Virus record (IMG/VR): IMGVR_UViG_3300020596_000020
Coordinates: 17,645-81,644 of that record
Length of the DNA stretch: 64,000 nt
Strand: one strand, 5' to 3'
Source of the DNA: a virus
Shown here: piece after piece, positions 28,454-61,629 of the stretch
Position numbering within the stretch: position 1 is the stretch's first letter
Layout: each line of letters opens with the position of its first letter
Program-made: the position numbers and the translations under genes
The notes under the pieces: generated by a model
What the model saw: the letters and a program-made list of their open reading frames with translations, nothing else
What the model was told of the DNA's origin: nothing
The model's database searches: none

Positions 28454-28660
28454 TCACGGGCGAACGATCTCCCACCCGAAATTTTCCCACTCGCTCAGGT
28501 CCCAGTCAAACTTTGAGATGGACCCGGCCGGCCGACGATCGTCTCCCGCGTCCTCGATGACTAGCCCCCACTGGCCGTAGTCATCGATGATGACGAACGA
28601 CGCTCGTGTAAACGCGAACACGAGGTCGGTGTAGAGGATAACCGTGCCCTTGAGACTCAC
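28454..28660 (-). CDS. Small protein of unknown function (68 aa)
   Basis: Beta-rich with several Trp (YGQWGLVIEDAGDD; WDLSEWENFGWEIV). Starts in a four-base overlap with the dnaE C-part and ends one base after the plus-strand zinc-ribbon gene. No family recognised. Confidence 0.5.
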   Translation of the reverse strand: MSLKGTVILYTDLVFAFTRASFVIIDDYGQWGLVIEDAGDDRRPAGSISKFDWDLSEWENFGWEIVRP

Positions 28661-30804
28661 AGATCGGTTCCGTCAACCTCTCGCATGTCACGGAGCGAGC
28701 AACTGAAACCGAGTTTGTCTTTCTTCACTCTCACGACGTAACAAGCGTACTTCTTGAGCTCGCTAATCTGATGCTCGGCGGTGCTCCACACGAACATGCG
28801 ATGGATGGCGCCGTCCGAGCCGTAGCACGCTAATTGGAAGAAGTTGTTGCCTGTGCGCGCGGTCTTTTTCTTACCGTCAGACAGTACCATCCAATACGTT
28901 CCGTACTTCGCAGTGGTGCATTCCTCGAGAGGCGGGATGTCGTGCGCCTTGAGCTGCATGCGTAAATCATCGTCGAGCAACGCATCGGGGTCGATAGAGC
29001 CATAGAGCTCGATCTGATTCTTCACGATCTCATCACGCGTCCAGTCAGTCAACGTCTTCGACTCCTCGATGAGCTCGGCGAGTCGGCGAGTGTGATACTC
29101 GGGGTCCTTTTTCAAGCGTTTCTTGAGTTCGGCCTGACCATCGACAATGACATGATGTAGCTGCTTGTAGTTCTCGAACGTTCTCCCCGGTCCGACGATT
29201 TGCATAGAGTCGAACGCCCCGAGTGTCACAAGTGCCCCGAGCGATTTCGAATTAAACTTACTGTGTCGCCACGTTCCGTTCTCATCCCAGAGCAGGTCCT
29301 CCAACTTACGATACGGTCGTTTCACCAGCAGCTCGTTCACAGCCGAGGTTCCGACGCCGGTGACCGTGAGGAAAGACGGGTAGAAGGTTCGGTTGTCAGA
29401 CGCGATCTCCCATTCGCGATTCGAGCGGTTGATGTCAACCTTTGCGACGTCGTAACCCATCGCCTTGATCTCGGCCAGCGCACGTCGACGCGAATCAGGA
29501 TCACCGAGCATGGATTCGACGTACGAGCAGAGCCATTCCGGCTCGTAGTAAGTCATCAACCAGGCACACTGATACGAGATATATCCGTACGAGTACGAGT
29601 GGGCGCGGTTGAAACCGTAGGCGGCGAACGCCTGTAGGTCGTCGTAGAGCAACTCCGCCTTTGCGCGTGGATAGCCTTTGGCCTCGGCGCCGTCCACGAA
29701 CTTCTCGTGCAGCTCGTCGGTCAGTGTCTTCCCCTTGGATGCGTCCTTGGTAGTGCGTTTCAGGATGGCCTTGCGCAGCTTGTCTGCCTCGACCTCGCTG
29801 AAGCCTGAGAGCTTCATTGAAATCTCCATGATCTGTTCTTGATAGATCACGAACCCCATCGTATCTTCAAGACATTCGTTGACCGCGGCGTGACCGTAGT
29901 CCTTCTTCACACCATCACGACGTGCTTTGATGTAGAGCTTGTCGACGTCGGCAGCTAACGGTCCGGGTCGGTAGATCGCGGTCGCGGCTGCCAGGTCGTG
30001 AACGCTACGAGGGTCAAGGTCAGTGATGAATCGCTGCGTGCTTGGATTCGTGAACTGAAAGATGCCGGCAAAGCGAGACTCACGGAAGACATGGTTGAAC
30101 ACGTCGCTCAGGTTCGGGTCGATGCGACTCGGCGTCAGATTATCGTCGTACCACTCCTTCACCTGCGCAAAGGTTGGGTTTCGGATCCCGCTGTGACGCT
30201 TCAGGATACGACGCACGCACCGCTCAATGATACGTAACGTGTCGAGGCCGAGGAGGTCGTACTTGACTAAGCCGTACGGGCTGAGACCCTTCATCGCCAT
30301 GCCTTCACTCCAAGGCGTCTGTAGGTCTCCGCGGACGCTGATGAGTGGCATGATGCCGTCAGGGTCGTCGTGAACGATGATGCCGCCGGCATGCTTGCCG
30401 ACAGCCTTCGTCTGCCGACCAAGGATCTTCACGTCGTTGTCGATCGCCGGGTACTTCTTCATCAGAGCGCGGAAAGCCGGCGAGTGCTCCATGCAGCCCT
30501 CGTACGTCAGCTGAACAGAACCCTTGGTGTCGTCGCCGGTATGAAGATGCGGCTTCACCTCCTGATCGAGATTCTTGGTGGCGTCGTTGACCTCGTTGAA
30601 CTCGAGCCCGTGCAGCTTGGACACGTCCTTCACGAGCGACTTCATCTGCAGACCGTTGAAGTTGCTGATGGGGACGATCGTCTTCTCGCCGAACTCCTTC
30701 TTTAGCAGGTCGATGACTTTGTCGCGATCAGAGACGTCGCAGTTGTGTGTCCCAATCCAACGATCTTCTTTCATAAAAGAAGAAATTCGATAACTTTTAC
30801 CCAC
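28657..30804 (-). CDS. dnaE: DNA polymerase III alpha, C-terminal part, with IntC at its N-terminus
   Basis: 715 aa from GTG 30804, preceded by AGGAG seven bases upstream. The first 21 residues end in WIGTHN, an intein C-terminus; the next residue is Cys, the +1 nucleophile. From there the protein is DnaE: CDVSDRDKVIDLLKKEFG continues the catalytic PDIDxD motif, followed by the fingers (YGFNRAHSYSYGYISYQCAW), and a C-terminal OB-like region (YWMVLSDGKKKTARTGNNFF). After splicing with the product at 31806-33755 the polymerase would be about 1,186 aa, normal for DnaE. Replicates phage DNA 5' to 3'. Without trans-splicing neither half holds both catalytic aspartates. Confidence 0.88.
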   Translation of the reverse strand: MGKSYRISSFMKEDRWIGTHNCDVSDRDKVIDLLKKEFGEKTIVPISNFNGLQMKSLVKDVSKLHGLEFNEVNDATKNLDQEVKPHLHTGDDTKGSVQLTYEGCMEHSPAFRALMKKYPAIDNDVKILGRQTKAVGKHAGGIIVHDDPDGIMPLISVRGDLQTPWSEGMAMKGLSPYGLVKYDLLGLDTLRIIERCVRRILKRHSGIRNPTFAQVKEWYDDNLTPSRIDPNLSDVFNHVFRESRFAGIFQFTNPSTQRFITDLDPRSVHDLAAATAIYRPGPLAADVDKLYIKARRDGVKKDYGHAAVNECLEDTMGFVIYQEQIMEISMKLSGFSEVEADKLRKAILKRTTKDASKGKTLTDELHEKFVDGAEAKGYPRAKAELLYDDLQAFAAYGFNRAHSYSYGYISYQCAWLMTYYEPEWLCSYVESMLGDPDSRRRALAEIKAMGYDVAKVDINRSNREWEIASDNRTFYPSFLTVTGVGTSAVNELLVKRPYRKLEDLLWDENGTWRHSKFNSKSLGALVTLGAFDSMQIVGPGRTFENYKQLHHVIVDGQAELKKRLKKDPEYHTRRLAELIEESKTLTDWTRDEIVKNQIELYGSIDPDALLDDDLRMQLKAHDIPPLEECTTAKYGTYWMVLSDGKKKTARTGNNFFQLACYGSDGAIHRMFVWSTAEHQISELKKYACYVVRVKKDKLGFSCSLRDMREVDGTDL
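30742..30804 (-). other. IntC, C-terminal fragment of a split intein (21 aa)
   Basis: Codes for the residues before the splice junction: GKSYRISSFMKEDRWIGTHN, with the penultimate His and terminal Asn of block G. It has no block F; that lies in the IntN half. Most known split inteins have an IntC of 35 residues or more, so this fragment is unusually short. Confidence 0.7.
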
Positions 30805-31822
30805 GCTTAATCTCCTGTGACAGACGATCTATTTCGTGTTTGAAATTGACTTTTGTGGCTGCTTCCCAACATATCAACACGCGACAACCAAGTTTACTCT
30901 CTATACGACGTACACGAGATTCGTTTTTAAGACGAATCTGTCCTGCTGTCATACCGGAATGAAGGAGTTTATCGGCAGTGTAGACGCTTGGATTTGCATG
31001 CCAATAGTCGCCATAATACTCAACTGCACAGTCTCGATCTGGAAGGTAAAGATCGAGACTGTAACACCAACCTTCTTCTCTATTTGAGACAAAGAACTGT
31101 CTATTCATCCAAGAATATGATTTCTCGTTCTCAAATTCCTTAAGAAGAGCGTAAATAAATTCTTCTTCTTTTGCTGACGAACCGGTCGTATGACTGTTAG
31201 GCCATTCAACGTACGGATTCACATTAGCAAACCAATTATTTTTCCCATGCGTTGAGAGCATGTTTGCTTTATGCAGATCGCGCACATTGCTAGACATCAT
31301 TGGGTACGAGACACCCAATCGTTGTTCACATGTAGCTTTGTATTTCGCTTGAATCAATGTTGACTGAAGTGGTCTATTGACACCATGACGATATCTCATA
31401 GTTGCTGTGAATTTATCTTGATATTCGTCAGTGCTATAAAAGGCTGATTTTAGACAAGATTCACAAAGAAATGTTCTCTTATGCTGACGACGTGCTGTGT
31501 TCCCCTCCATTACGTGGAGTTTTCCGCATGTTGGACACTTGAAATTGAATGCCAAAGAACCTAAAGCATACTTTTTCGCATTCTCATCGACGAAATGACA
31601 TTTTTCGTCATCAAGCACGAATTCCACGTTGTTGATCAGTAACCCGGTAGTCATCACACGCGTAGAAACTGCGTGCTTCACATTTTCGTAGCTGAACCAT
31701 GGTGTTTCGAACAGTCCGCTAAACTGTTTTCTGAGCAGATTTATTTCGCGCGAGGATTCGTCTTTGAGTTGATACCCGTGTTTCGCAGCTAACACTGACG
31801 AGAAGTTACTTCGATACTTCAT
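30797..31822 (-). CDS. Vsr-like (EDxHD-type) homing endonuclease gene between the dnaE halves
   Basis: 341 aa from ATG 31822, overlapping the end of the dnaE N-part by 17 bases and its C-part by eight. The catalytic region is at the C-terminus: WCYSLDLYLPDRDCAVEYYG, then DYWHANP, and RRIESKLGCRVLICWE, the very-short-patch-repair-like fold used by a homing endonuclease family tied to split inteins. A zinc ribbon (FKCPTCGKLH, FLCESC) lies near residues 95-125. From literature knowledge, such genes inserted inside split-intein loci form so-called fractured genes. The nuclease would cut intein-free dnaE alleles and spread the locus; target not determined. Confidence 0.75.
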   Translation of the reverse strand: MKYRSNFSSVLAAKHGYQLKDESSREINLLRKQFSGLFETPWFSYENVKHAVSTRVMTTGLLINNVEFVLDDEKCHFVDENAKKYALGSLAFNFKCPTCGKLHVMEGNTARRQHKRTFLCESCLKSAFYSTDEYQDKFTATMRYRHGVNRPLQSTLIQAKYKATCEQRLGVSYPMMSSNVRDLHKANMLSTHGKNNWFANVNPYVEWPNSHTTGSSAKEEEFIYALLKEFENEKSYSWMNRQFFVSNREEGWCYSLDLYLPDRDCAVEYYGDYWHANPSVYTADKLLHSGMTAGQIRLKNESRVRRIESKLGCRVLICWEAATKVNFKHEIDRLSQEIKRG

Positions 31823-33755
31823 CAACGTCTAAATAGTCATTGACTTTGATAATCACGTCACCCAAACGTGGATCACTTTCATCCACGTAGACATCGAACG
31901 GAATGACACGAAAAGTGTGAGAATGTTCGACCTCAATGTCCACTAACGTTCGTATACCATGCAAAATTATGATACCAACCACGACGCAATTCTCAGATCC
32001 CTTGAGAGAGTGCCCGATTAACAGTTGTTTGGCACGAACAACTGTGTTATCATCAAGTACCATCTTGTGCTCGGCGTTACACACAATCGTTCCATAGCAT
32101 GAATCTTGTTTCACTAGTAGTTCGTAGATTATCTCATCTTTTCTAGCAGATCTTGCGTTCACGGTCAAGACTTTACGATGAGCGCCTTCGATATCGATCA
32201 CAACGTCGTTTTTTTCAACTGTCTCGATGCGCTTATAACTTCCATCTGTCATCATGATCAAATGACGAGCATCTAAACAATCGATGTCTGGAACGTCAGT
32301 GCGAGCCAACGACATGAAGCGGGCGAAGATGAGATTGTTAGAAACAGGATCGACGTCTGTGATGCCGAGCACGAAGTTGACGAGGCTGCCGGCTCCGGAC
32401 CCGCGACCCGGACCGACGAGACAATCCTTCTTGGCAACATCAAGGATCGCCTTCAGAGTGAGGAAGTAAATGGAGTTGTCGAGCTTCTTGATGACGGACA
32501 GCTCGTTCTTGAGTCGCGCGACGTAGGCCGGTAGATGGGCCAACCGCTTCGCGCGCATGCCCTCCTTGCAACTCTCCACGAGCGTCTGGAACGGCGTCAT
32601 GTCGGGGCGAACGCCGAAGCTAGGAAGCTTCACGCTCGTGTCGATGGTCACGTCGCCGATGACGTCGTGCGCGACGTGCCAGGCGTTCTCGATGGACTCG
32701 GCTACGACCGCGTCGTCGTAGAACGCGTGACCCTCCTTGTACAGGTTGTACGCATCCCACATCTGATCCGCGTTCTTTGGATAGAGCTCGCACTTGAGCT
32801 GCTTCACGTCAGCCGGGATGGAGTCCGGACCGAGCTCCGAACCGCCGCGCCCCATGCGGCCAAGCAGCTTGTACACCTCGCGTGCGCGCCACAGATCGGG
32901 GCTACAGTAGTGCGAGTCAGCCGTAGCGACCAACTTGACGCCGTTCGACTTTGCGAACTCAAGCAGCACACGGTTGGTGAGGTGTTGAGGCGCTAAGCGG
33001 TTGAACTGGATCTCAGCGAACACGTTGTCGCGCCCGACGGCGTCCGTGAGTCTGTCGAACTCGTTGCCGACGGCTCGCATAACGGCGTCGCGCTTCCCAG
33101 GTTCGTCCAGGATATCTGGGGTCAACTCGTCGAACGACTTACCGGCGAACTGAGAGTACGTCGCCCAAGATGGCACGCCGGCAACGCAGGCCGTAGACAC
33201 TACGACGTCCTCGCCATGTTCCTTCAGCATTGCCGAGTCGATGCGCGGGAAGCGGTAATAACCCTCGCGCGCACTGCGAGACACCAAGCGAAAGATGTTC
33301 TCGAGGCCCTTCTGCGACTTAGGAAGCAGCACGAGGTGGTGGCGACGCTCGACCGGGTCGAGGTATTTGCCGTTACGCTTGGACGCGTCCTCGTCTTCCA
33401 CGGCGACGCCCGTGTCATCTTCGTCATTGTCCGGACGCTTGACTTTGGCAGCCTCGCGCTCTTCCTTGCGCACTTGGTCACGCGTGACTTTCGCTGCGGC
33501 CCAGTCCTTCAGACTCGGGATGTAGTATGCTTCGACCCCGGGAATGAACTTCATGGGTCGACCGTTTTTATTCAACTCCTGTGTTTTTTGGTAGCATTCA
33601 GGGAACGAGTTCATGTTTCCATGATTCGTCATAGCCATCGAGCTCATGCCATTGTCAGCAGCGAACTGGATGTGATCTCCTCCATCACCGAAGCCGTCGT
33701 AGATGCTTTTCCCATCGTGTGCGTGCAAGTTCGCGAACTTCTTCGGATTTACCAT
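31806..33755 (-). CDS. dnaE: DNA polymerase III alpha, N-terminal part fused to IntN
   Basis: 649 aa. It begins with a PHP domain (NLHAHDGKSIYDGFGDGG). PGRGSGAGSLVNFVLGITDV and FARFMSLARTDVPDID are the palm entrance of C-family polymerases. Residue 493 is Cys1 of the intein, directly after PDID, where the first catalytic Asp sits. The final 157 residues are IntN. The stop overlaps the endonuclease start, so the three genes are translationally linked. A tRNA-Thr gene lies just upstream. The start ATG has no Shine-Dalgarno. Confidence 0.88.
   Translation of the reverse strand: MVNPKKFANLHAHDGKSIYDGFGDGGDHIQFAADNGMSSMAMTNHGNMNSFPECYQKTQELNKNGRPMKFIPGVEAYYIPSLKDWAAAKVTRDQVRKEEREAAKVKRPDNDEDDTGVAVEDEDASKRNGKYLDPVERRHHLVLLPKSQKGLENIFRLVSRSAREGYYRFPRIDSAMLKEHGEDVVVSTACVAGVPSWATYSQFAGKSFDELTPDILDEPGKRDAVMRAVGNEFDRLTDAVGRDNVFAEIQFNRLAPQHLTNRVLLEFAKSNGVKLVATADSHYCSPDLWRAREVYKLLGRMGRGGSELGPDSIPADVKQLKCELYPKNADQMWDAYNLYKEGHAFYDDAVVAESIENAWHVAHDVIGDVTIDTSVKLPSFGVRPDMTPFQTLVESCKEGMRAKRLAHLPAYVARLKNELSVIKKLDNSIYFLTLKAILDVAKKDCLVGPGRGSGAGSLVNFVLGITDVDPVSNNLIFARFMSLARTDVPDIDCLDARHLIMMTDGSYKRIETVEKNDVVIDIEGAHRKVLTVNARSARKDEIIYELLVKQDSCYGTIVCNAEHKMVLDDNTVVRAKQLLIGHSLKGSENCVVVGIIILHGIRTLVDIEVEHSHTFRVIPFDVYVDESDPRLGDVIIKVNDYLDVDEVSK
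31809..32279 (-). other. IntN, N-terminal fragment of a split intein (about 157 aa)
   Basis: Begins CLDARHLIMMTDGSYKRIET (block A with Cys1), continues through VCNAEHKMVL (block B with its His) and TLVDIEVEHSHTFRV (block F). Where a complete intein would end in a His-Asn, this fragment reads VYVDES. Either it is a full-length intein whose own C-terminus has been lost and replaced in trans by the 21-aa IntC, or the split point is unusually late. Confidence 0.7.
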
Positions 33756-33795: not shown

Positions 33796-33870
33796 TGGAG
33801 CCACCGACCGGACTTGAACCGGTATAACGAAGATACAAACTTCGGGTCCTGCCATTAAACGACAGTGGCT
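33796..33870 (-). tRNA. tRNA-Thr (anticodon TGT)
   Basis: 75 nt. The acceptor arm pairs AGCCACT with GGTGGCT (one G-T pair) and the CCA end is encoded. Anticodon arm CGAAG / CTTCG around TTTGTAT gives anticodon TGT (ACA codons). The T arm ACCGG / CCGGT has loop TTCAAGT. The D arm is short but plausible. It lies alone between small genes and dnaE. Confidence 0.85.
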
Positions 33871-35604: not shown

Positions 35605-38043
35605 TTAGTAAAGAATACCGCCGCTCGTCGGTACGTATTTCTTTGGGCCGTAATCCCAACAGAAACCGACCGTTGCTGAAGATGTGTTCGCAGCAATTGT
35701 GCCAACGCCGATGTTGTTGTTCAAAGGCGTTACCACGGTCTTGCCAGTGGCTGTTGGATTTGGGAAGATCGCTCCCCACACACCAGAAACACCGCGCAGC
35801 CTGCTGTCATTCAAGTAAATGATCATCCCTTTCCACGACAGCGGCACAGGGTTTTTGTTGGTGTAGGTGTAAACTTTACACCCGCCACTACCCCAATCGT
35901 ACGTCTTCACTGCGGTGACAACGAGAGGGAGGCAACCCTTTGCGCTGACTGTTCCCTTGACACTTGGACACAGATCGTTGACGTCGAGCACCCCATCGCC
36001 GTCAGTGTCGGTCGTCGGAGAAACGTATGTGCACGACTGACTGAGTGTGGGTGTGCCAGAGCATACAGTCGGATTCGAGGTCACCGTTCGCGTTTGCGTT
36101 CCGTTAGATTGGCAAACGTTCCAAGTCGAGTACGTGAACGTGCAAACAGGAGGAACATATGTACACGACTGTGTGAGCGACGCAGACGTCCCAACACAAC
36201 CGACCGGCAACGAAGTGACGGTTCGCGTCTGCGTTTCCGTTGACGAACACGATGACCACGTTGAGTATGTGAAGACACACGACGGAGGAGGCAAAGGCGC
36301 GCTGTCAGTCATCCAACCCGCGTTCATGAAGGGCAGCAAGCTGTTGATGAGATCATATTTGGTGCCGGTCGTCCCCACGTCGTTGTCCCAGTGACTACCA
36401 GGCTTCTCGATGAACGTCACCGGGAACCCGCGAGTCTTCAAGATGTTCATATTGTTACGCACGTTGGCGATCGCGTAGTACGTGATGGTATCGCCGGTGT
36501 GAGCAAGGTGAGCGATGTTGAGCTTCCAGCTCGCGGTCGTGGACGCCGTCATGGCAGTCACGCTCGGATTGGTGTTCTCGAAGATGAGTCCAGAGAACAA
36601 ATTTGCGTTCTTGAACGCGAGCTCGTACCCGATGTCACCGCCGGACGAGTATCCTCCGAGAATCACGCGACGCGGATCGACGTTAAAATGTGTCTTCATG
36701 TTCGCGATGGCGGCGAGGATCTTCGCACCGTCGGTCGCGTAGTTGGACCAACAAGCTCCCTCACGACCACCGACAGCAAGTGTGATCCAGTTCTGTGCGC
36801 CGCCAGGCGACACCATCCAGGCGTCGTACTGCGCCTGTCCACCGCATCCGTGGAGCCAGACGAGTAGTGAGATCGGAGTGGCGTGCGTCGCGTCGTAACT
36901 CGCTGGGACGTACGCCCAGTTGGTCTGACCGCTGTTGGTCGTAAAGACTGTGCTCTTCGTGTAGGCGATGGGGTTTGTCACCGGCGACGTTGTGGTCGGC
37001 GACAAAGTAAGGAACGGTGTGAGCCAGGCTGTCTGTGGGCGATCGACGCCTGCTTTCGGCTCGAGCGTGAGCATATACTCACCCCACCACGGTCCAGCAG
37101 CCCACCATGCCCAGCCAACGAGCACGTCAGAGTTGACGGTCGCGTACGTGAGGAAGTCCGTCACAGCAGCCTTACACGTCGACGTGTTCGGTGTTCCGAT
37201 CTCGCCGACCCAGATCTTCTTGCCGTTCTGTCGAGCCCATGCCACGACTGCGGTCATGCGAGTCGATCCAATAGTGGAGTTGACGCAATCTGTGCCGCCG
37301 CCACTACCGTCACTGTCGAAGTAGTTGTGCACCTCGAAGATCGAGTTGTTACCGCTGTCCACGTACTTGAGAAGCGCGACGGAGTTGGCCGTCCCGTACC
37401 AGGTCGCAGTCCAGCTGTGAGCGCCTGACCACGCGTTGCCAGGCACCGACACCACATTCGTCGCTCCCGTGGCTCGAATGGCCGCGGTGGCCGCGTTGGC
37501 AGTGATCACCCACTGCTCGGTGGGCATGTCGTGCGGCTCGTTGACGAGGCCGAACACAACCTTGAGATTGGACTTGTACTTGACGGCGAGTCGCGACCAG
37601 AGGTTCGCGAACACACTGGAGGGGACTTGTGTCGTGCCTACAACGCCATCATAGTAACGGGCGAAGTTGTGCGGATTAAGAACGACCGTCAAACCTTTCG
37701 ACGTCGCGTAGACGACGATGGCGTTGAGATCAGTCTCGTACGTCGGCACAAACGCGCCGTTGGCTGTCGGCTGCAGACGTTCCCATAAAAAACCGACACG
37801 AACCGTGTTCATGCCCTTACTAGCGAAATAGTCGACTTCGCTTGTTGTCGGCCAAACATAATCGGTGCCCTTGACGCCAGGCTTTGCAGTACCAAACTCG
37901 GCTCCAGCGAGATTGATGCCGTGCATCGCGGGAAGACTGACTTCAGTCTTGGGGAAGTCGCTGCGACCGATATGCGGGTAACAGCCGACGGTTATCAGCA
38001 CGGTGCTGACGATAAGAATGAGATATCGGATGATCTTGTTCAT
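35605..38043 (-). CDS. Secreted modular GH5 glycosidase plus esterase with thrombospondin-like and CBM2-like modules
   Basis: 812 aa. Signal peptide ending ITVGC21, probably lipidated. Residues 38-345 are a GH5 (cellulase-type) barrel: VVFGLVNEP with Glu169 as acid/base, and KKIWVGEIGTP with Glu281 as nucleophile. Residues about 365-560 form a CE1/LpqC-like esterase with VWLHGCGG, GYSSG (Ser466) and a late PGSHWDND. Two TSP1-like repeats follow (CxFTYSTW ... GTQTRTVTS), then a calcium-type DTDGDGVLDVNDLC repeat, and a C-terminal module resembling CBM2. From family knowledge it should cut beta-glycans and release ester side groups outside the cell. Composition and modules are those of bacterial cell-wall-degrading enzymes, so transfer from a host is likely. 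Confidence 0.85.
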   Translation of the reverse strand: MNKIIRYLILIVSTVLITVGCYPHIGRSDFPKTEVSLPAMHGINLAGAEFGTAKPGVKGTDYVWPTTSEVDYFASKGMNTVRVGFLWERLQPTANGAFVPTYETDLNAIVVYATSKGLTVVLNPHNFARYYDGVVGTTQVPSSVFANLWSRLAVKYKSNLKVVFGLVNEPHDMPTEQWVITANAATAAIRATGATNVVSVPGNAWSGAHSWTATWYGTANSVALLKYVDSGNNSIFEVHNYFDSDGSGGGTDCVNSTIGSTRMTAVVAWARQNGKKIWVGEIGTPNTSTCKAAVTDFLTYATVNSDVLVGWAWWAAGPWWGEYMLTLEPKAGVDRPQTAWLTPFLTLSPTTTSPVTNPIAYTKSTVFTTNSGQTNWAYVPASYDATHATPISLLVWLHGCGGQAQYDAWMVSPGGAQNWITLAVGGREGACWSNYATDGAKILAAIANMKTHFNVDPRRVILGGYSSGGDIGYELAFKNANLFSGLIFENTNPSVTAMTASTTASWKLNIAHLAHTGDTITYYAIANVRNNMNILKTRGFPVTFIEKPGSHWDNDVGTTGTKYDLINSLLPFMNAGWMTDSAPLPPPSCVFTYSTWSSCSSTETQTRTVTSLPVGCVGTSASLTQSCTYVPPVCTFTYSTWNVCQSNGTQTRTVTSNPTVCSGTPTLSQSCTYVSPTTDTDGDGVLDVNDLCPSVKGTVSAKGCLPLVVTAVKTYDWGSGGCKVYTYTNKNPVPLSWKGMIIYLNDSRLRGVSGVWGAIFPNPTATGKTVVTPLNNNIGVGTIAANTSSATVGFCWDYGPKKYVPTSGGILY

Positions 38044-54843: not shown

Positions 54844-55812
54844 TCAGGCTCGTTTGGTCAGCGGCATAAACGCGCTGCAAAAGTCGTGCGGGTTCTCAAT
54901 CGTCCGCACTCCGACCTCGATGAGGTCGCGCATGAACGATAGCATGTCAATCTTGGGAGAATGCTCTGCAAGAATGGTATCGGTGCGAGCTGCCTGATCG
55001 TGCGTAAGCGTTGAACCTCCCAGGTAAACGAGGCGCCAGTTGGTCCGGATCAACTGCTCGTTCTGGACAACGTTCATCATCACCTTGGCCTCGTTGCGCC
55101 GCACATTCGCGTACTCGATGACCTGGTCGATGGTGATTTCCGCATCCGAGATGAGTAGAGGGATCCGTTGCACAAGTGTCTTGAAGCCGAGCCCTTTGAC
55201 GCCGGGAATGTTGTCGGACTTGTCACCACACAACGCCTTCGCCAGGGCGAAGTTGTGCGCCTGGATCCCGAAGAACTCCTTCTTAACGTCCTCCATCGTG
55301 TGAAGACGTTTCGACTGCGGCGAGTAGATGCTCGTCTTCTCGTCGAGCAGCTGATAGAAGTCCTTGTCGTTCGACAGAATAATCTTCTTCCGATCCTTGA
55401 ACTGGTTGCGGTGCAGATGAGCGATAACGTCGTCGCCTTCACAGTCCGACACGTAGACCTGACAGACGGGGAAGCGCTTGAGCATTCGCGCGAGGATCGC
55501 CATCTGCCAGACGCGATTGTCTTCGGTATCCGGGATGTCATCCTCGTAGAAGCGGTTGAGACGCTCAGGCTTGCGGTTCGCCTTGTACTCAGAGTAGATG
55601 GCACGTCGCTTCGTCGATCCGCCACCCTCCCACGCGATGATCACTTGAGCTGGAGAAAGATCGTAAACGAGACGACGAAGGGTTTTGAGAGAACCGATCG
55701 CGCCTCCGATTTGCTGACCGTTCGTGGTCATGTCCGGATTTACGACGTAGTGCCTTGTGAAGAGATTGGCCATGTCGACCAGTAAAATTGGAAGAGTTTC
55801 TTGTACTTGCAT
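54844..55812 (-). CDS. 5'-3' exonuclease / flap endonuclease (PIN-FEN family), copy 2
   Basis: 322 aa. Motifs are as in copy 1: LLVDMANLF, AIYSEYKANRK, CEGDDVIAHL, ILSNDKDF, and LCGDKSDNIPGVKGLGFKT; Glu replaces the usual Asp at the AWEGG strand. The C-terminus is longer. Placed directly before the replicative helicase, as expected for a replisome nuclease. The promoter-type hexamer TAGATA is seven bases before its ATG; an EDxHD endonuclease gene lies upstream in the opposite direction. Confidence 0.88.
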   Translation of the reverse strand: MQVQETLPILLVDMANLFTRHYVVNPDMTTNGQQIGGAIGSLKTLRRLVYDLSPAQVIIAWEGGGSTKRRAIYSEYKANRKPERLNRFYEDDIPDTEDNRVWQMAILARMLKRFPVCQVYVSDCEGDDVIAHLHRNQFKDRKKIILSNDKDFYQLLDEKTSIYSPQSKRLHTMEDVKKEFFGIQAHNFALAKALCGDKSDNIPGVKGLGFKTLVQRIPLLISDAEITIDQVIEYANVRRNEAKVMMNVVQNEQLIRTNWRLVYLGGSTLTHDQAARTDTILAEHSPKIDMLSFMRDLIEVGVRTIENPHDFCSAFMPLTKRA

Positions 55813-55819
55813 TTGTTAG

Positions 55820-55853
55820 TATCTACTTAGTCCTGATGCGACACAAGAACTTC
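55820..55853 (-). promoter_or_regulatory. Variant phage-type promoter (GAAGTT-N22-TAGATA) before 5' nuclease copy 2
   Basis: GAAGTTCTTG begins at 55853, TAGATA is at 55820-55825. The box lies inside the first codons of the divergent endonuclease gene, as at copy 1. Confidence 0.45.
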
Positions 55854-56828
55854 AGAGTCCTCGACCAATCGATCATCGACGCGATGTGCGCACGATATCG
55901 CACTGGCTTTAGTATAACTGACTTGGCAGCCGAGTTCTGTCTCGGTCGGAACAAGGTAATCAAAACATTGAAGGAGGCGCTCGGCATCGAGTACGCCGCA
56001 TGTGCGCGTCTGGCACGTGCTTCTGTCGGTCAGAAGGTGGCTCCCAAGCTTCGTGGTCGAAAGAATCCTCATACCGACGAATGGAACGCAAAAATCGCTG
56101 CCTCACACATCGGTAAAACACATTCCGAAGATACAAAAGCGCTTATCTCTCAGCGTGGCAAAGAACGCGAGCTCAACCCGGAGTGGCAAGCGCGGAAGAG
56201 CGAAATATACGCGAAGATCGTCGCGACGAAGCGCGCGAACGGTTACTTCGAGGAACACAGTAAGCGTCACTCGGAATGGATGATCGTGAACGCGCCGATG
56301 CGAGGCAAGAAGATGTCTGCCGAAACACGCGCGATAATGAGCGCTAGTAAACATGAGCTCATGGCCAAGGGTTGGAAACCTACTATGCCGGAGGTGACTC
56401 CGGAAACGCGTCGCGCATTCAGCGAAAATACCAAGCGAATGTGGCGAGAAGGTAAGTTCACTTACGGTGGCGGGGCGGTCATGCGCAGCAAGCTCGAGAA
56501 GCGAGTGTATGCCGACGTCCTCGCATGTCACCCCGACGCGACTCATTCATATCCTCTCGTCAGCAGTGATCGAACCTACTGCTACGACATCCACGTCCCG
56601 TCGCTCAACCTGCTCATCGAGGTGAACGGCGACTTCTGGCATTGCAACCCTCGCCTGATGTCGGATGAGGATTGGAAACAAGTTAGAGACGTGGATGTCG
56701 TTCGTTCGAAGGATGCAGACAAGGCTTGCGTAGCCATCGAGAGCGGTTACGTCTTTGTCACGCTGTGGGAGATGGATCTCGTGGGGATCAACGCGTCGAC
56801 TTTGCTACTCAGCGAGAGGCATCGCTAA
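55836..56828 (+). CDS. Vsr-like (EDxHD-type) homing endonuclease, free-standing
   Basis: 330 aa from ATG 55836. An N-terminal HTH (FSITDLAAEFCLGRNKVIKT), then two NUMOD3-like motifs (SHIGKTHSEDTKALIS; MRGKKMSAETRAIMS). The C-terminal nuclease contains YCYDIHVPSLNLLIEVNGDF, FWHCNPRL, and ESGYVFVTLWE, the same fold as the dnaE-inserted enzyme at 30797-31822. It is on the plus strand among minus-strand replication genes, next to 5' nuclease copy 2. Confidence 0.75.
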   Translation: MRHKNFRVLDQSIIDAMCARYRTGFSITDLAAEFCLGRNKVIKTLKEALGIEYAACARLARASVGQKVAPKLRGRKNPHTDEWNAKIAASHIGKTHSEDTKALISQRGKERELNPEWQARKSEIYAKIVATKRANGYFEEHSKRHSEWMIVNAPMRGKKMSAETRAIMSASKHELMAKGWKPTMPEVTPETRRAFSENTKRMWREGKFTYGGGAVMRSKLEKRVYADVLACHPDATHSYPLVSSDRTYCYDIHVPSLNLLIEVNGDFWHCNPRLMSDEDWKQVRDVDVVRSKDADKACVAIESGYVFVTLWEMDLVGINASTLLLSERHR

Positions 56829-60480: not shown

Positions 60481-61629
60481 TCAAAGTATAGGTCTCCCAG
60501 TCGTCGTCGAAGCCTTGATAGGGAACGGAAGTTTGAAATTCGGCACGTTCACACCCAAAGCGGCCAGGCGAGCAGCGTTCTTAAGATGCTTCACCGGCAC
60601 GCTCGCGAACAAGGCGTCGTGCAGCAAGAAGTGGGGCTTCACGTCGAAGATTTCGAGGGCGCGCGTGAGCTGTTGGAAACCGAGCAGTGTGACGTCGCAG
60701 CCGGTCGATTGCACGTAGTTGCTGTAGAGGGTCGCCTCAGTCACGTCCTGGATCACGCGACCGTAGAAGTTACGCACAGGCATGCCCGCGTCCATCGAGC
60801 GCTTAAGTCTCGTGAACTGCTCGCCCAGTTTGAAGATGCGACGCACAGTCGAGACGCGAGGGTCACGCTGATTCGCGTCGGTCGGGTCAGAGTACAAGGC
60901 GACGAAGGTCGCTCTCTTGGCCTCATCGCGGTCCGCGATGCTCATAAGCTTAGCGATCTCCACGTACGGGTCGACGTTCACGGACACTTCTTGCCGAGCG
61001 AGCGTCAGGGCGACGCGCGCTTCGAGCGAGGTGAAGTCGAACTGCACCATCAGATGGTCGGGGTCCACGCCCACGAAGAAGGCGCGCGTGGTCTGACGGA
61101 CGGTGAGCACCCTCGCGCCTTCCGTGACGGTCAGACGACCCGTCCTCGTGCCAAAGCGATTGTACGTCGGCGGCTCCACCCACCCATTGGACCCGTGACA
61201 CGAGACGGCCATCGGATCGTCGCTATCAATCACACCCGGGTCGACTCTCCAGGGCGTCAACTTCGCGAAGAGTGATGTGCAAGGTACGAAGACGTCACGG
61301 TGATAGCTTCGGTCGCACGCGTCGACAAGACTCTGAGCCTCTTTCAACTTATCGAGCGCCCACCAGAGACGTCTAGATGGATGAATGAGCGCCCATGGGT
61401 TGTGTTTGCCTAGCAATTCCGACACTTTGTCGAACTTCTGTGGCACGGCCGTGTCGAAAGCTTTTCCTTCGAGCTCGAAGAGCGTCAGAATACACCCAGG
61501 ATCGGTGTGATCCGTCACGAGGCCAACCCAATCGCAGCCGATCAGACGCTCGAGCGTCAAAGTTGGCCTCCCCGCGTCGGTAAAGACGTGTTTCTCTAGA
61601 TCACAGAACTTCCGGTCGATCCCGATCAT
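60481..61629 (-). CDS. Divergent, compact family A DNA polymerase-like protein
   Basis: 382 aa, smaller than known Pol I palms. RFGTRTGRLTVTEG followed by VQFDFTSLEARVALTLARQE matches motif A (Asp198). ADRDEAKRATFVALYSD resembles motif B, and PHFLLHDALFASVP motif C with Asp338. There is no visible 3'-5' exonuclease domain. The window already encodes a DnaE polymerase, so this may be a repair or accessory polymerase. Confidence 0.65.
   Translation of the reverse strand: MIGIDRKFCDLEKHVFTDAGRPTLTLERLIGCDWVGLVTDHTDPGCILTLFELEGKAFDTAVPQKFDKVSELLGKHNPWALIHPSRRLWWALDKLKEAQSLVDACDRSYHRDVFVPCTSLFAKLTPWRVDPGVIDSDDPMAVSCHGSNGWVEPPTYNRFGTRTGRLTVTEGARVLTVRQTTRAFFVGVDPDHLMVQFDFTSLEARVALTLARQEVSVNVDPYVEIAKLMSIADRDEAKRATFVALYSDPTDANQRDPRVSTVRRIFKLGEQFTRLKRSMDAGMPVRNFYGRVIQDVTEATLYSNYVQSTGCDVTLLGFQQLTRALEIFDVKPHFLLHDALFASVPVKHLKNAARLAALGVNVPNFKLPFPIKASTTTGRPIL

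What the first reader, a model, noticed from the sequence alone, without database searches (positions are those of the whole stretch)
28657..33755. dnaE is a fractured gene: split intein at the catalytic motif with an EDxHD/Vsr endonuclease between the halves
Seen: the dnaE N-part ends PDID followed by Cys and about 157 intein-like residues (blocks A, B and F). The C-part begins with 21 residues ending THN then Cys and continues the polymerase. The joined exteins read PDID-CDVSD, so the break sits between the two catalytic aspartates of PDIDxD. Between the halves lies a gene with a C-terminal Vsr-like nuclease, and all three genes overlap. Known: free-standing endonucleases inside split-intein loci have been described as fractured genes in environmental phage-like sequences. 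Odd here: IntC is only 21 residues, and the IntN half still carries block F and a degenerate VYVDES where an intein normally ends.
Basis: partly seen in the sequence, partly recalled or inferred. Interest (0 to 1): 0.9.

Follow-up and report, generated by a model that had tools for sequence, protein, structure and literature searches.

The report
Phage polymerase broken by split intein
A virus of bacteria carries its DNA polymerase gene in two pieces, cut between two catalytic residues, with a mobile DNA-cutting gene between them and protein-joining tags on the broken ends; the layout is a known one, but the second tag is only about 20 residues long, where surveyed natural ones have at least 34, a length so far known from laboratory designs.

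Summary
The finding is real. In an 81.6-kb IMG/VR virus record, dnaE is split at PDID|C-DVSD, between the two aspartates of the catalytic PDIDxD motif. The inserted element is 1,538 bp (30742-32279) at about 42% GC, against about 57% in the flanks. It encodes an N-intein (157 aa), an EDxHD/Vsr-type nuclease, and a 21-aa C-intein ending THN|C. The site is uninterrupted in all 83 distinct relatives read across it, including a dnaE about 76% identical over the N-part. Profiles and AlphaFold2/Foldseek identify the N-intein as a Hint domain closest to gp41-1. So this is a 'fractured gene' of the kind described by Dassa et al. 2009. What is new is the split point: catalytic block F stays on the N-intein, and the C-intein supplies only the last hairpin. 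A chimera of IntN up to the block-F His plus IntC fits related inteins at 24 bits (shuffled IntC mean 12.7; 1 of 3,000 reaches it). Among 86 EDxHD genes surveyed, 43 are followed by a C-intein of 34-62 or 121-146 aa; one further short case (L280) is damaged. This dnaE lineage has split inteins at several other sites. Splicing itself is inferred.

The parts
32280..33755 (-). dnaE N-extein, 492 aa: PHP domain and first part of the polymerase, ending PDID (first catalytic Asp)
   Evidence: Pfam PHP and DNA_pol3_alpha, PHROG 405 positions 40-446; 76% identical to L113; dN 0.19, dS 1.1
31905..32279 (-). N-intein core, residues 1-125: Cys1, block B (GTIVCNAEHKM), block F (VDIEVEHSHTF)
   Evidence: BLASTP to L113 IntN E 2e-9; profile to gp41-1 5e-10; AF2 of residues 1-137 pTM 0.66, Foldseek 6qaz E 1.4e-5
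31809..31904 (-). surplus C-terminal tail of the N-intein ORF, 32 aa (IPFDVYVDES...EVSK), overlapping the endonuclease start; not a recognisable block G
   Evidence: adds no score to the C-terminal Hint profile: 18.2 vs 18.0 bits; no significant similarity to extein or to other IntN ends
30797..31822 (-). free-standing endonuclease gene (ATG start; TTG 31825 also possible), 341-342 aa; Zn-ribbon-like and DUF7487-like N part, EDxHD/Vsr-like C-terminal domain
   Evidence: PHROG homing endonuclease 5e-11; DUF7487 above cut-off; family profile A10 to Vsr E 1e-4 and 3R3P E 8e-4
30989..31021 (-). nuclease motif EYYGDYWHANP
   Evidence: G, D and H and a downstream E invariant in 13 homologues; E, W, N, P nearly so
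30812..30816 (-). Shine-Dalgarno AGGAG, 7 nt before the GTG of dnaE-C, inside the end of the endonuclease gene
   Evidence: sequence
30742..30804 (-). C-intein, 21 aa (MGKSYRISSFMKEDRWIGTHN); block G with penultimate His and terminal Asn
   Evidence: stop codon 9 codons upstream in frame; chimera with IntN scores 24.0-27.1 bits vs 12.7 for shuffled IntC
28657..30741 (-). dnaE C-extein, 694 aa, starting Cys+1-Asp (second catalytic Asp), with stop codon
   Evidence: Pfam DNA_pol3_alpha 110-260, finger, HHH_6; 72% identical to L113; dN 0.22, dS 1.25
30742..32279 (-). whole inserted element, 1,538 bp
   Evidence: GC about 0.42 against about 0.57 outside, sharp at both edges; absent from all 83 distinct relatives read across the site

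Best explanation
A mobile split-intein plus homing-endonuclease element sits in a phage dnaE. dnaE-N, the endonuclease and dnaE-C are translated separately from overlapping genes. IntN (functional residues about 1-125) carries Cys1 and the block B and block F catalytic residues and forms a nearly complete Hint domain. The 21-aa IntC adds the last hairpin with the penultimate His, terminal Asn and Cys+1. When the two halves meet, class-1 trans-splicing (N-S acyl shift at Cys1, transesterification to Cys+1, Asn cyclisation) joins PDID to CDVSD, restores both catalytic aspartates and yields a 1,186-aa DnaE. The EDxHD nuclease probably cuts the empty dnaE site of co-infecting phages so that the element is copied in. 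The unusual split point probably arose when the nuclease cassette landed between the block-F His and block G of a one-piece mini-intein rather than between blocks B and F; the 32-aa IntN tail is then read-through into cassette DNA. Shown: gene structure, homologies, Hint-type fold prediction, empty sites, statistical fit of IntC to IntN. Inferred: splicing, homing, and the origin of the split.
For: Complementary extein halves abutting at PDID|C. IntN homologous to a neighbour-site IntN in the nearest relative and to solved inteins; AF2/Foldseek put IntN residues 1-137 on gp41-1 with TM about 0.7. IntC matters: IntN to His121 + SYRISSFMKEDRWIGTHN scores 24.0 bits, or 27.1 joined after HTFRV, against a shuffled mean of 12.7 (1 of 3,000 as good; 0 of 3,000 with THN held fixed). 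Cys1, block-F D and H, HN and Cys+1 all present. Good ribosome site for IntC. Both dnaE halves diverge from L113 with dN/dS about 0.17. Uninterrupted PDIDxD in 83 distinct relatives, never Cys at the middle position, so Cys+1 probably came with the element. HEG profile matches Vsr and 3R3P. Engineered C-inteins of 15-16 aa (PMC2664965) and 6-7 aa (PMC3620165) do trans-splice, so a 21-aa one is chemically plausible.
Against: No splicing or cleavage data. IntC is too short to be found alone (3.1 bits). IntN carries 32 extra residues that AF2 partly folds as a strand where block G belongs (128-132); IntC might have to displace them, and the alignment used may bias that placement. The full-length single-sequence model failed (pLDDT 33). 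Block B has Cys where most inteins have Thr (CNAEH; PI-SceI has the same). dN/dS mostly records divergence that may predate the insertion. One genome only; a second possible case (L280) has a broken downstream frame.
Confidence: 0.74

Rival explanations
1. The intein is dead or only cleaves. The polymerase works, if at all, as two chains held together non-covalently, or is being lost, with the phage relying on the host polymerase or on its small PolA-like protein (60481-61629).
For: Very short IntC, surplus IntN tail, non-consensus block B; a PolA-like protein is encoded nearby (PHROG 17 E 9e-15; weak Pfam DNA_pol_A).
Against: The break separates the two catalytic aspartates that must share one active site; THN|C and a good ribosome site are retained; IntC fits the block F/G profile only in register with IntN; both halves are intact and conserved. 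The PolA-like protein is far shorter than a usual family A polymerase and below the family cut-off in the genome search.
Confidence: 0.18
2. The canonical split (between blocks B and F) applies and IntC only looks short because of a sequencing or assembly indel, or because translation frameshifts from the endonuclease into dnaE-C.
For: The end of the endonuclease overlaps the dnaE-C start by 8 nt; single metagenomic contig, no reads available.
Against: Block F is already inside IntN (VDIEVEHSHTF, 10 of 13 identical to L118); the endonuclease ends where its homologues end, so no DNA is left for another block F; the upstream frame is closed 9 codons before the GTG.
Confidence: 0.05
3. IntN retains a complete but mutated Hint end (block G changed to VYVDE|S) and IntC is a second, duplicated block G, produced by target-site duplication when the endonuclease entered.
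For: AF2 puts DVYVD as a strand in IntN; IntN TFRVIPF and IntC SYRISSF look alike; in L280 a block-G-like GFYNHN lies out of frame after IntN.
Against: No statistical support: IntC vs IntN tail p about 0.3; DNA duplication p 0.25 in the window and 0.58 in L280; VYVDE adds nothing to the profile score.
Confidence: 0.12

Closest known systems
Fractured genes (Dassa et al. 2009, doi 10.1093/nar/gkp095; text not held here, content from memory)
   Same: DNA-synthesis enzyme gene broken by a split intein with a free-standing Vsr-type endonuclease gene between the halves, in phage
   Different: Host site between the catalytic aspartates of DnaE; block F lies on the N-intein; C-intein 21 aa
gp41-1 and related phage/metagenome split inteins (6qaz, 6riz; NrdJ-1 8ubs)
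   Same: Best Hint matches by profile and by fold
   Different: Those inteins are split between blocks B and F with longer C-inteins
Engineered short C-inteins: Npu DnaE C15 (PMC2664965), S11 split inteins with 6-7-aa C-intein (PMC3620165)
   Same: Block-F and earlier catalytic residues mostly on a large N-intein; small C-intein bearing the terminal HN/SN
   Different: Laboratory constructs; here natural, with an endonuclease gene in the break. Npu C15 still includes the block-F His, S11 starts later; this split lies between
AceL-TerL-type natural atypical split inteins (PMC11766414)
   Same: Natural, very unequal halves
   Different: Mirror image: there the N-intein is the short piece (25 aa)
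Split intein of cyanobacterial DnaE (Ssp/Npu DnaE)
   Same: Same host protein family
   Different: Different site (before CFNKSH), canonical split, halves far apart in the genome, no endonuclease (from memory)

Membership tests
Fractured gene arrangement | conserved enzyme gene broken in two, with halves matching abutting parts of the family | tested here: met
Fractured gene arrangement | break flanked by split-intein halves | tested here: met
   IntN; IntC: chimera profile test
Fractured gene arrangement | free-standing endonuclease gene between the halves | tested here: met
EDxHD/Vsr-type homing endonucleases | catalytic domain related to Vsr and to I-Bth0305I (3R3P, identified from memory), with conserved E, D, H, E residues | tested here: met
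   profile A10 to 1CW0/1VSR/1ODG E 1e-4 and 3R3P E 8e-4; conserved motif. The window protein alone does not pass Pfam Vsr
EDxHD/Vsr-type homing endonucleases | cleaves the intein-less allele | not testable with these tools
   no biochemistry; empty sites exist in relatives
Class 1 intein | Cys1, block B His, block F Asp/His, block G His-Asn, Cys/Ser/Thr +1 | tested here: met
   sequence: C1, CNAEH, VDIEVEHSH, THN, C+1; block B Thr replaced by Cys
Canonical natural split intein | split between blocks B and F (PMC4031507), C-intein of about 35 aa or more | tested here: not met
   block F in IntN, IntC 21 aa; survey range 34-62 or 121-146 aa
Functional split intein | trans-splicing of the exteins | not testable with these tools
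   needs expression and mass spectrometry

The most novel reading that the evidence does not exclude
Nature has made the counterpart of the engineered short-C split intein: an endonuclease cassette landed after the block-F histidine, and a 21-aa C-intein still completes the Hint domain and splices a replicative polymerase between its catalytic aspartates. A second, damaged dnaE locus (L280, IntN 135 aa with block F, C-intein 23 aa ending GVICHN|S) suggests a rare recurring type rather than a one-off.
Probability: 0.6. Interest if true: 0.62.

Novelty: new variant of a known kind. Interest (0 to 1): 0.52.

Why it matters
It would show that natural splitting of inteins is not confined to the linker between blocks B and F (or to very short N-inteins), and that an endonuclease cassette can enter the last hairpin without killing splicing. 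A natural, possibly efficient 21-aa C-intein would be directly useful for attaching synthetic peptides to protein C-termini. The surrounding comparison shows phage dnaE of this lineage to be a hotspot: split or one-piece inteins at GRG|S, GRHR|T, PDID|C, NRS|C and FNK|S, with up to four interruptions apparent in one gene (L154), which makes the question of how fractured polymerases are kept working testable across many natural alleles.

Tried and rejected
(1) IntN tail as a duplicated extein start: protein shuffles p 0.07-0.87, DNA p 0.08 at best with dinucleotide shuffles; rejected as unproven. (2) IntN tail as a second copy of the end of a canonical IntN: 211 of 2,000 shuffles as good; rejected. 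(3) IntC as a duplicate of IntN TFRVIPF: p 0.3. (4) RNA element, intron or terminator at the junction: nothing in Rfam but a tRNA upstream of dnaE; RNA fold z -0.9. (5) Full-length IntN fold from a single sequence: pLDDT 33, unusable. (6) IntN relatives by peptide pattern or tblastn in phages: none. (7) L280 as a clean second example: IntN has block F and the IntC-like peptide ends at the extein, but the C-extein frame is broken after SDYPD and IntC does not beat shuffles (750 of 2,000); kept as a lead only. (8) L265 flagged by the survey turned out to be another arrangement, an interrupted UvsX/RecA-like gene with the endonuclease downstream of IntC. (9) Folding IntN plus IntC as one chain was not possible, since only unaltered window proteins may be submitted.

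Full report
WHAT IS THERE. The window is 17645-81644 of an 81,644-bp IMG/VR virus record. On the minus strand, dnaE-N (31806-33755), an endonuclease gene (30797-31822/31825) and dnaE-C (28657-30804) follow each other with small overlaps. Pfam and PHROGs place the two dnaE pieces on complementary parts of DnaE (PHROG 405 positions 40-446 and 452-1054); only these two pieces exist in the record. The N-extein ends PDID at residue 492; residue 493 is the Cys1 of a 157-residue intein piece. dnaE-C starts with GTG behind AGGAG, reads 21 residues to THN, then Cys-Asp-Val-Ser-Asp. The joined exteins read PDID-CDVSD, 1,186 aa. That these two aspartates are catalytic (E. coli D401 and D403) is established knowledge of DnaE, not tested here.

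THE ELEMENT. Between the codons for Asp492 and Cys+1 lie 1,538 bp (30742-32279). GC is about 42% inside and about 57% outside, with sharp steps at both ends. Its boundaries are those of an insertion. Relatives confirm this: all 83 distinct sequences read across the site have uninterrupted PD(I/V)DxD, with x = Tyr, Thr, Ser, Phe, Val or Asn but never Cys, so Cys+1 probably arrived with the element (inference). The nearest relative, L113 (N-part 76%, C-part 72% identical), has YPDVDVDVSD there. Both halves differ from L113 with dN/dS near 0.17, which fits retained function but may mostly predate the insertion.

THE INTEIN. The N-intein matches the L113 N-intein (E 2e-9 pairwise); a profile of related N-inteins hits gp41-1 (5e-10), DnaE and other solved inteins and finds only this place in the record. 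AlphaFold2 on residues 1-137 with seven sequences gave pLDDT 78 and pTM 0.66 in the best of five models; the other four were near or below 58. Foldseek's best match is gp41-1 (6qaz, E 1.4e-5, TM about 0.7). Blocks A, B (CNAEH) and F (VDIEVEHSHTF, 10 of 13 identical to the one-piece intein of L118) are all on this piece.

WHERE IT IS SPLIT. I built a profile from 15 related intein C-terminal regions, the window excluded. IntN through the block-F His joined to SYRISSFMKEDRWIGTHN scores 24.0 bits, and joined after HTFRV to SSFMKEDRWIGTHN 27.1 bits. Shuffled IntC averages 12.7 (1 of 3,000 reaches 24.0; none of 3,000 when THN is kept). Continuing with IntN's own sequence (IPFDVYVDES...) scores no better than stopping (18.2 vs 18.0). 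So the split lies just after the block-F His, IntC supplies the last hairpin, and the 32-residue IntN tail is not a block G by this test. Its origin is unexplained: similarity to the extein, to other IntN ends and to IntC was tested and is not significant. The simplest reading is DNA carried in with the endonuclease gene, whose start it overlaps.

THE ENDONUCLEASE. Its C-terminal domain carries EYYGDYWHANP. Aligned with 12 relatives, G, D, H and a later E are invariant, and the family profile hits Vsr (1CW0, 1VSR, 1ODG; E 1e-4) and 3R3P, deposited as 'Mobile intron protein' (E 8e-4), which I recall as the EDxHD enzyme I-Bth0305I. Alone, the window protein does not reach Pfam's Vsr model. A second gene of this family lies at 55788-56828 on the other strand.

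CONTEXT. The same dnaE lineage is riddled with inteins: L113 at GRG|SGAG; L117, L130, L134 and L154 at GRHR|TSWPDID, with a one-piece 141-aa intein at the same place in L118; L154 also at NRS|CGRHAGG and further upstream; L032, L126, L133, L134, L152 near FN(K/R)|SH. In every one of these the C-intein carries blocks F and G. Among 86 distinct EDxHD genes, 43 are followed by a C-intein, of 34-62 aa or, in the short-N type, 121-146 aa; the search model needs block F, so very short C-inteins could be missed, and I looked for them from the N side too. One further candidate appeared: L280, also a dnaE, with block F on a 135-aa N-intein, an EDxHD gene, and a 23-aa peptide ending GVICHN|S at the extein. 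Its C-extein frame is broken five residues later and its C-intein does not beat shuffles, so it is a lead, not a proof.

HOW IT MOST LIKELY WORKS. Class-1 trans-splicing between the two translated halves, restoring the active site, with the nuclease spreading the element into empty dnaE alleles. Shown: anatomy, homologies, fold type, empty sites, in-register fit of IntC. Inferred: splicing, homing, and origin by insertion of the cassette after the block-F His of a one-piece intein. Plausibility of so short a C-intein comes from engineered ones: 15-16 aa of Npu/Ssp DnaE (PMC2664965) and 6-7 aa (PMC3620165, where 4 of 14 constructs worked).

COMPARED WITH WHAT IS KNOWN. The arrangement is that of 'fractured genes' (Dassa et al. 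2009; text not held; cited as the source of the EDxHD/Vsr HEG family in PMC12350094). [quoted passage not shown] a 2025 review lists short-N natural cases but only synthetic short-C ones (PMC11766414). My literature view is limited to the open papers held, so absence of an earlier natural short-C report is likely but not certain. Whether Dassa et al. already listed DnaE among their eight enzyme types I could not check.

VERDICT. A real fractured dnaE: known kind, new variant. The interest lies in the split position and in the dnaE hotspot, not in the arrangement itself.

Noticed in passing
window 55788-56828 (+): Second EDxHD/Vsr-type endonuclease gene, alone and on the strand opposite to its neighbours, next to a 5'-3' exonuclease gene and near DnaB and UvsX genes; no intein beside it.
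   Followed up: partly
window 60481-61629 (-): A 382-aa PolA-like protein (PHROG 17 E 9e-15, weak Pfam DNA_pol_A) with motif A-like DFTSLEARV and motif C-like HDALF, far shorter than usual family A polymerases, in a phage that also has DnaE.
   Followed up: partly
window 33796-33869 (-): tRNA-Thr (TGT) directly upstream of dnaE-N; the only tRNA in the window.
   Followed up: no
L154 3856-10763: A phage dnaE interrupted at what look like several sites (one upstream ending LHVNSAC with its C-intein before CLGG, then GRHR|T, then NRS|C), two of them with EDxHD genes: one gene in several pieces.
   Followed up: partly
L118 7483-7905 and L117 2899-4275: Same intein site in two related phage dnaE genes: one-piece 141-aa mini-intein in L118, split by a nuclease gene in L117; a near before-and-after pair for how a split arises.
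   Followed up: partly
L280 1347-2975: dnaE with block F on the N-intein, EDxHD gene, then MLKEIGGLGNLIDIDPIGVICHN|SDYPD followed by a stop; a block-G-like GFYNHN lies out of frame right after the N-intein. Decayed or mis-sequenced second short-C case.
   Followed up: partly
L265 1113-3846: RecA/UvsX-like gene interrupted by an intein and with an EDxHD gene further downstream, so that the gene seems to lie in three pieces.
   Followed up: no
window 35605-38043 (-): 812-aa protein with a GH5 cellulase domain followed by a possible esterase region, unusual cargo for a phage, next to a NADAR-domain gene.
   Followed up: no
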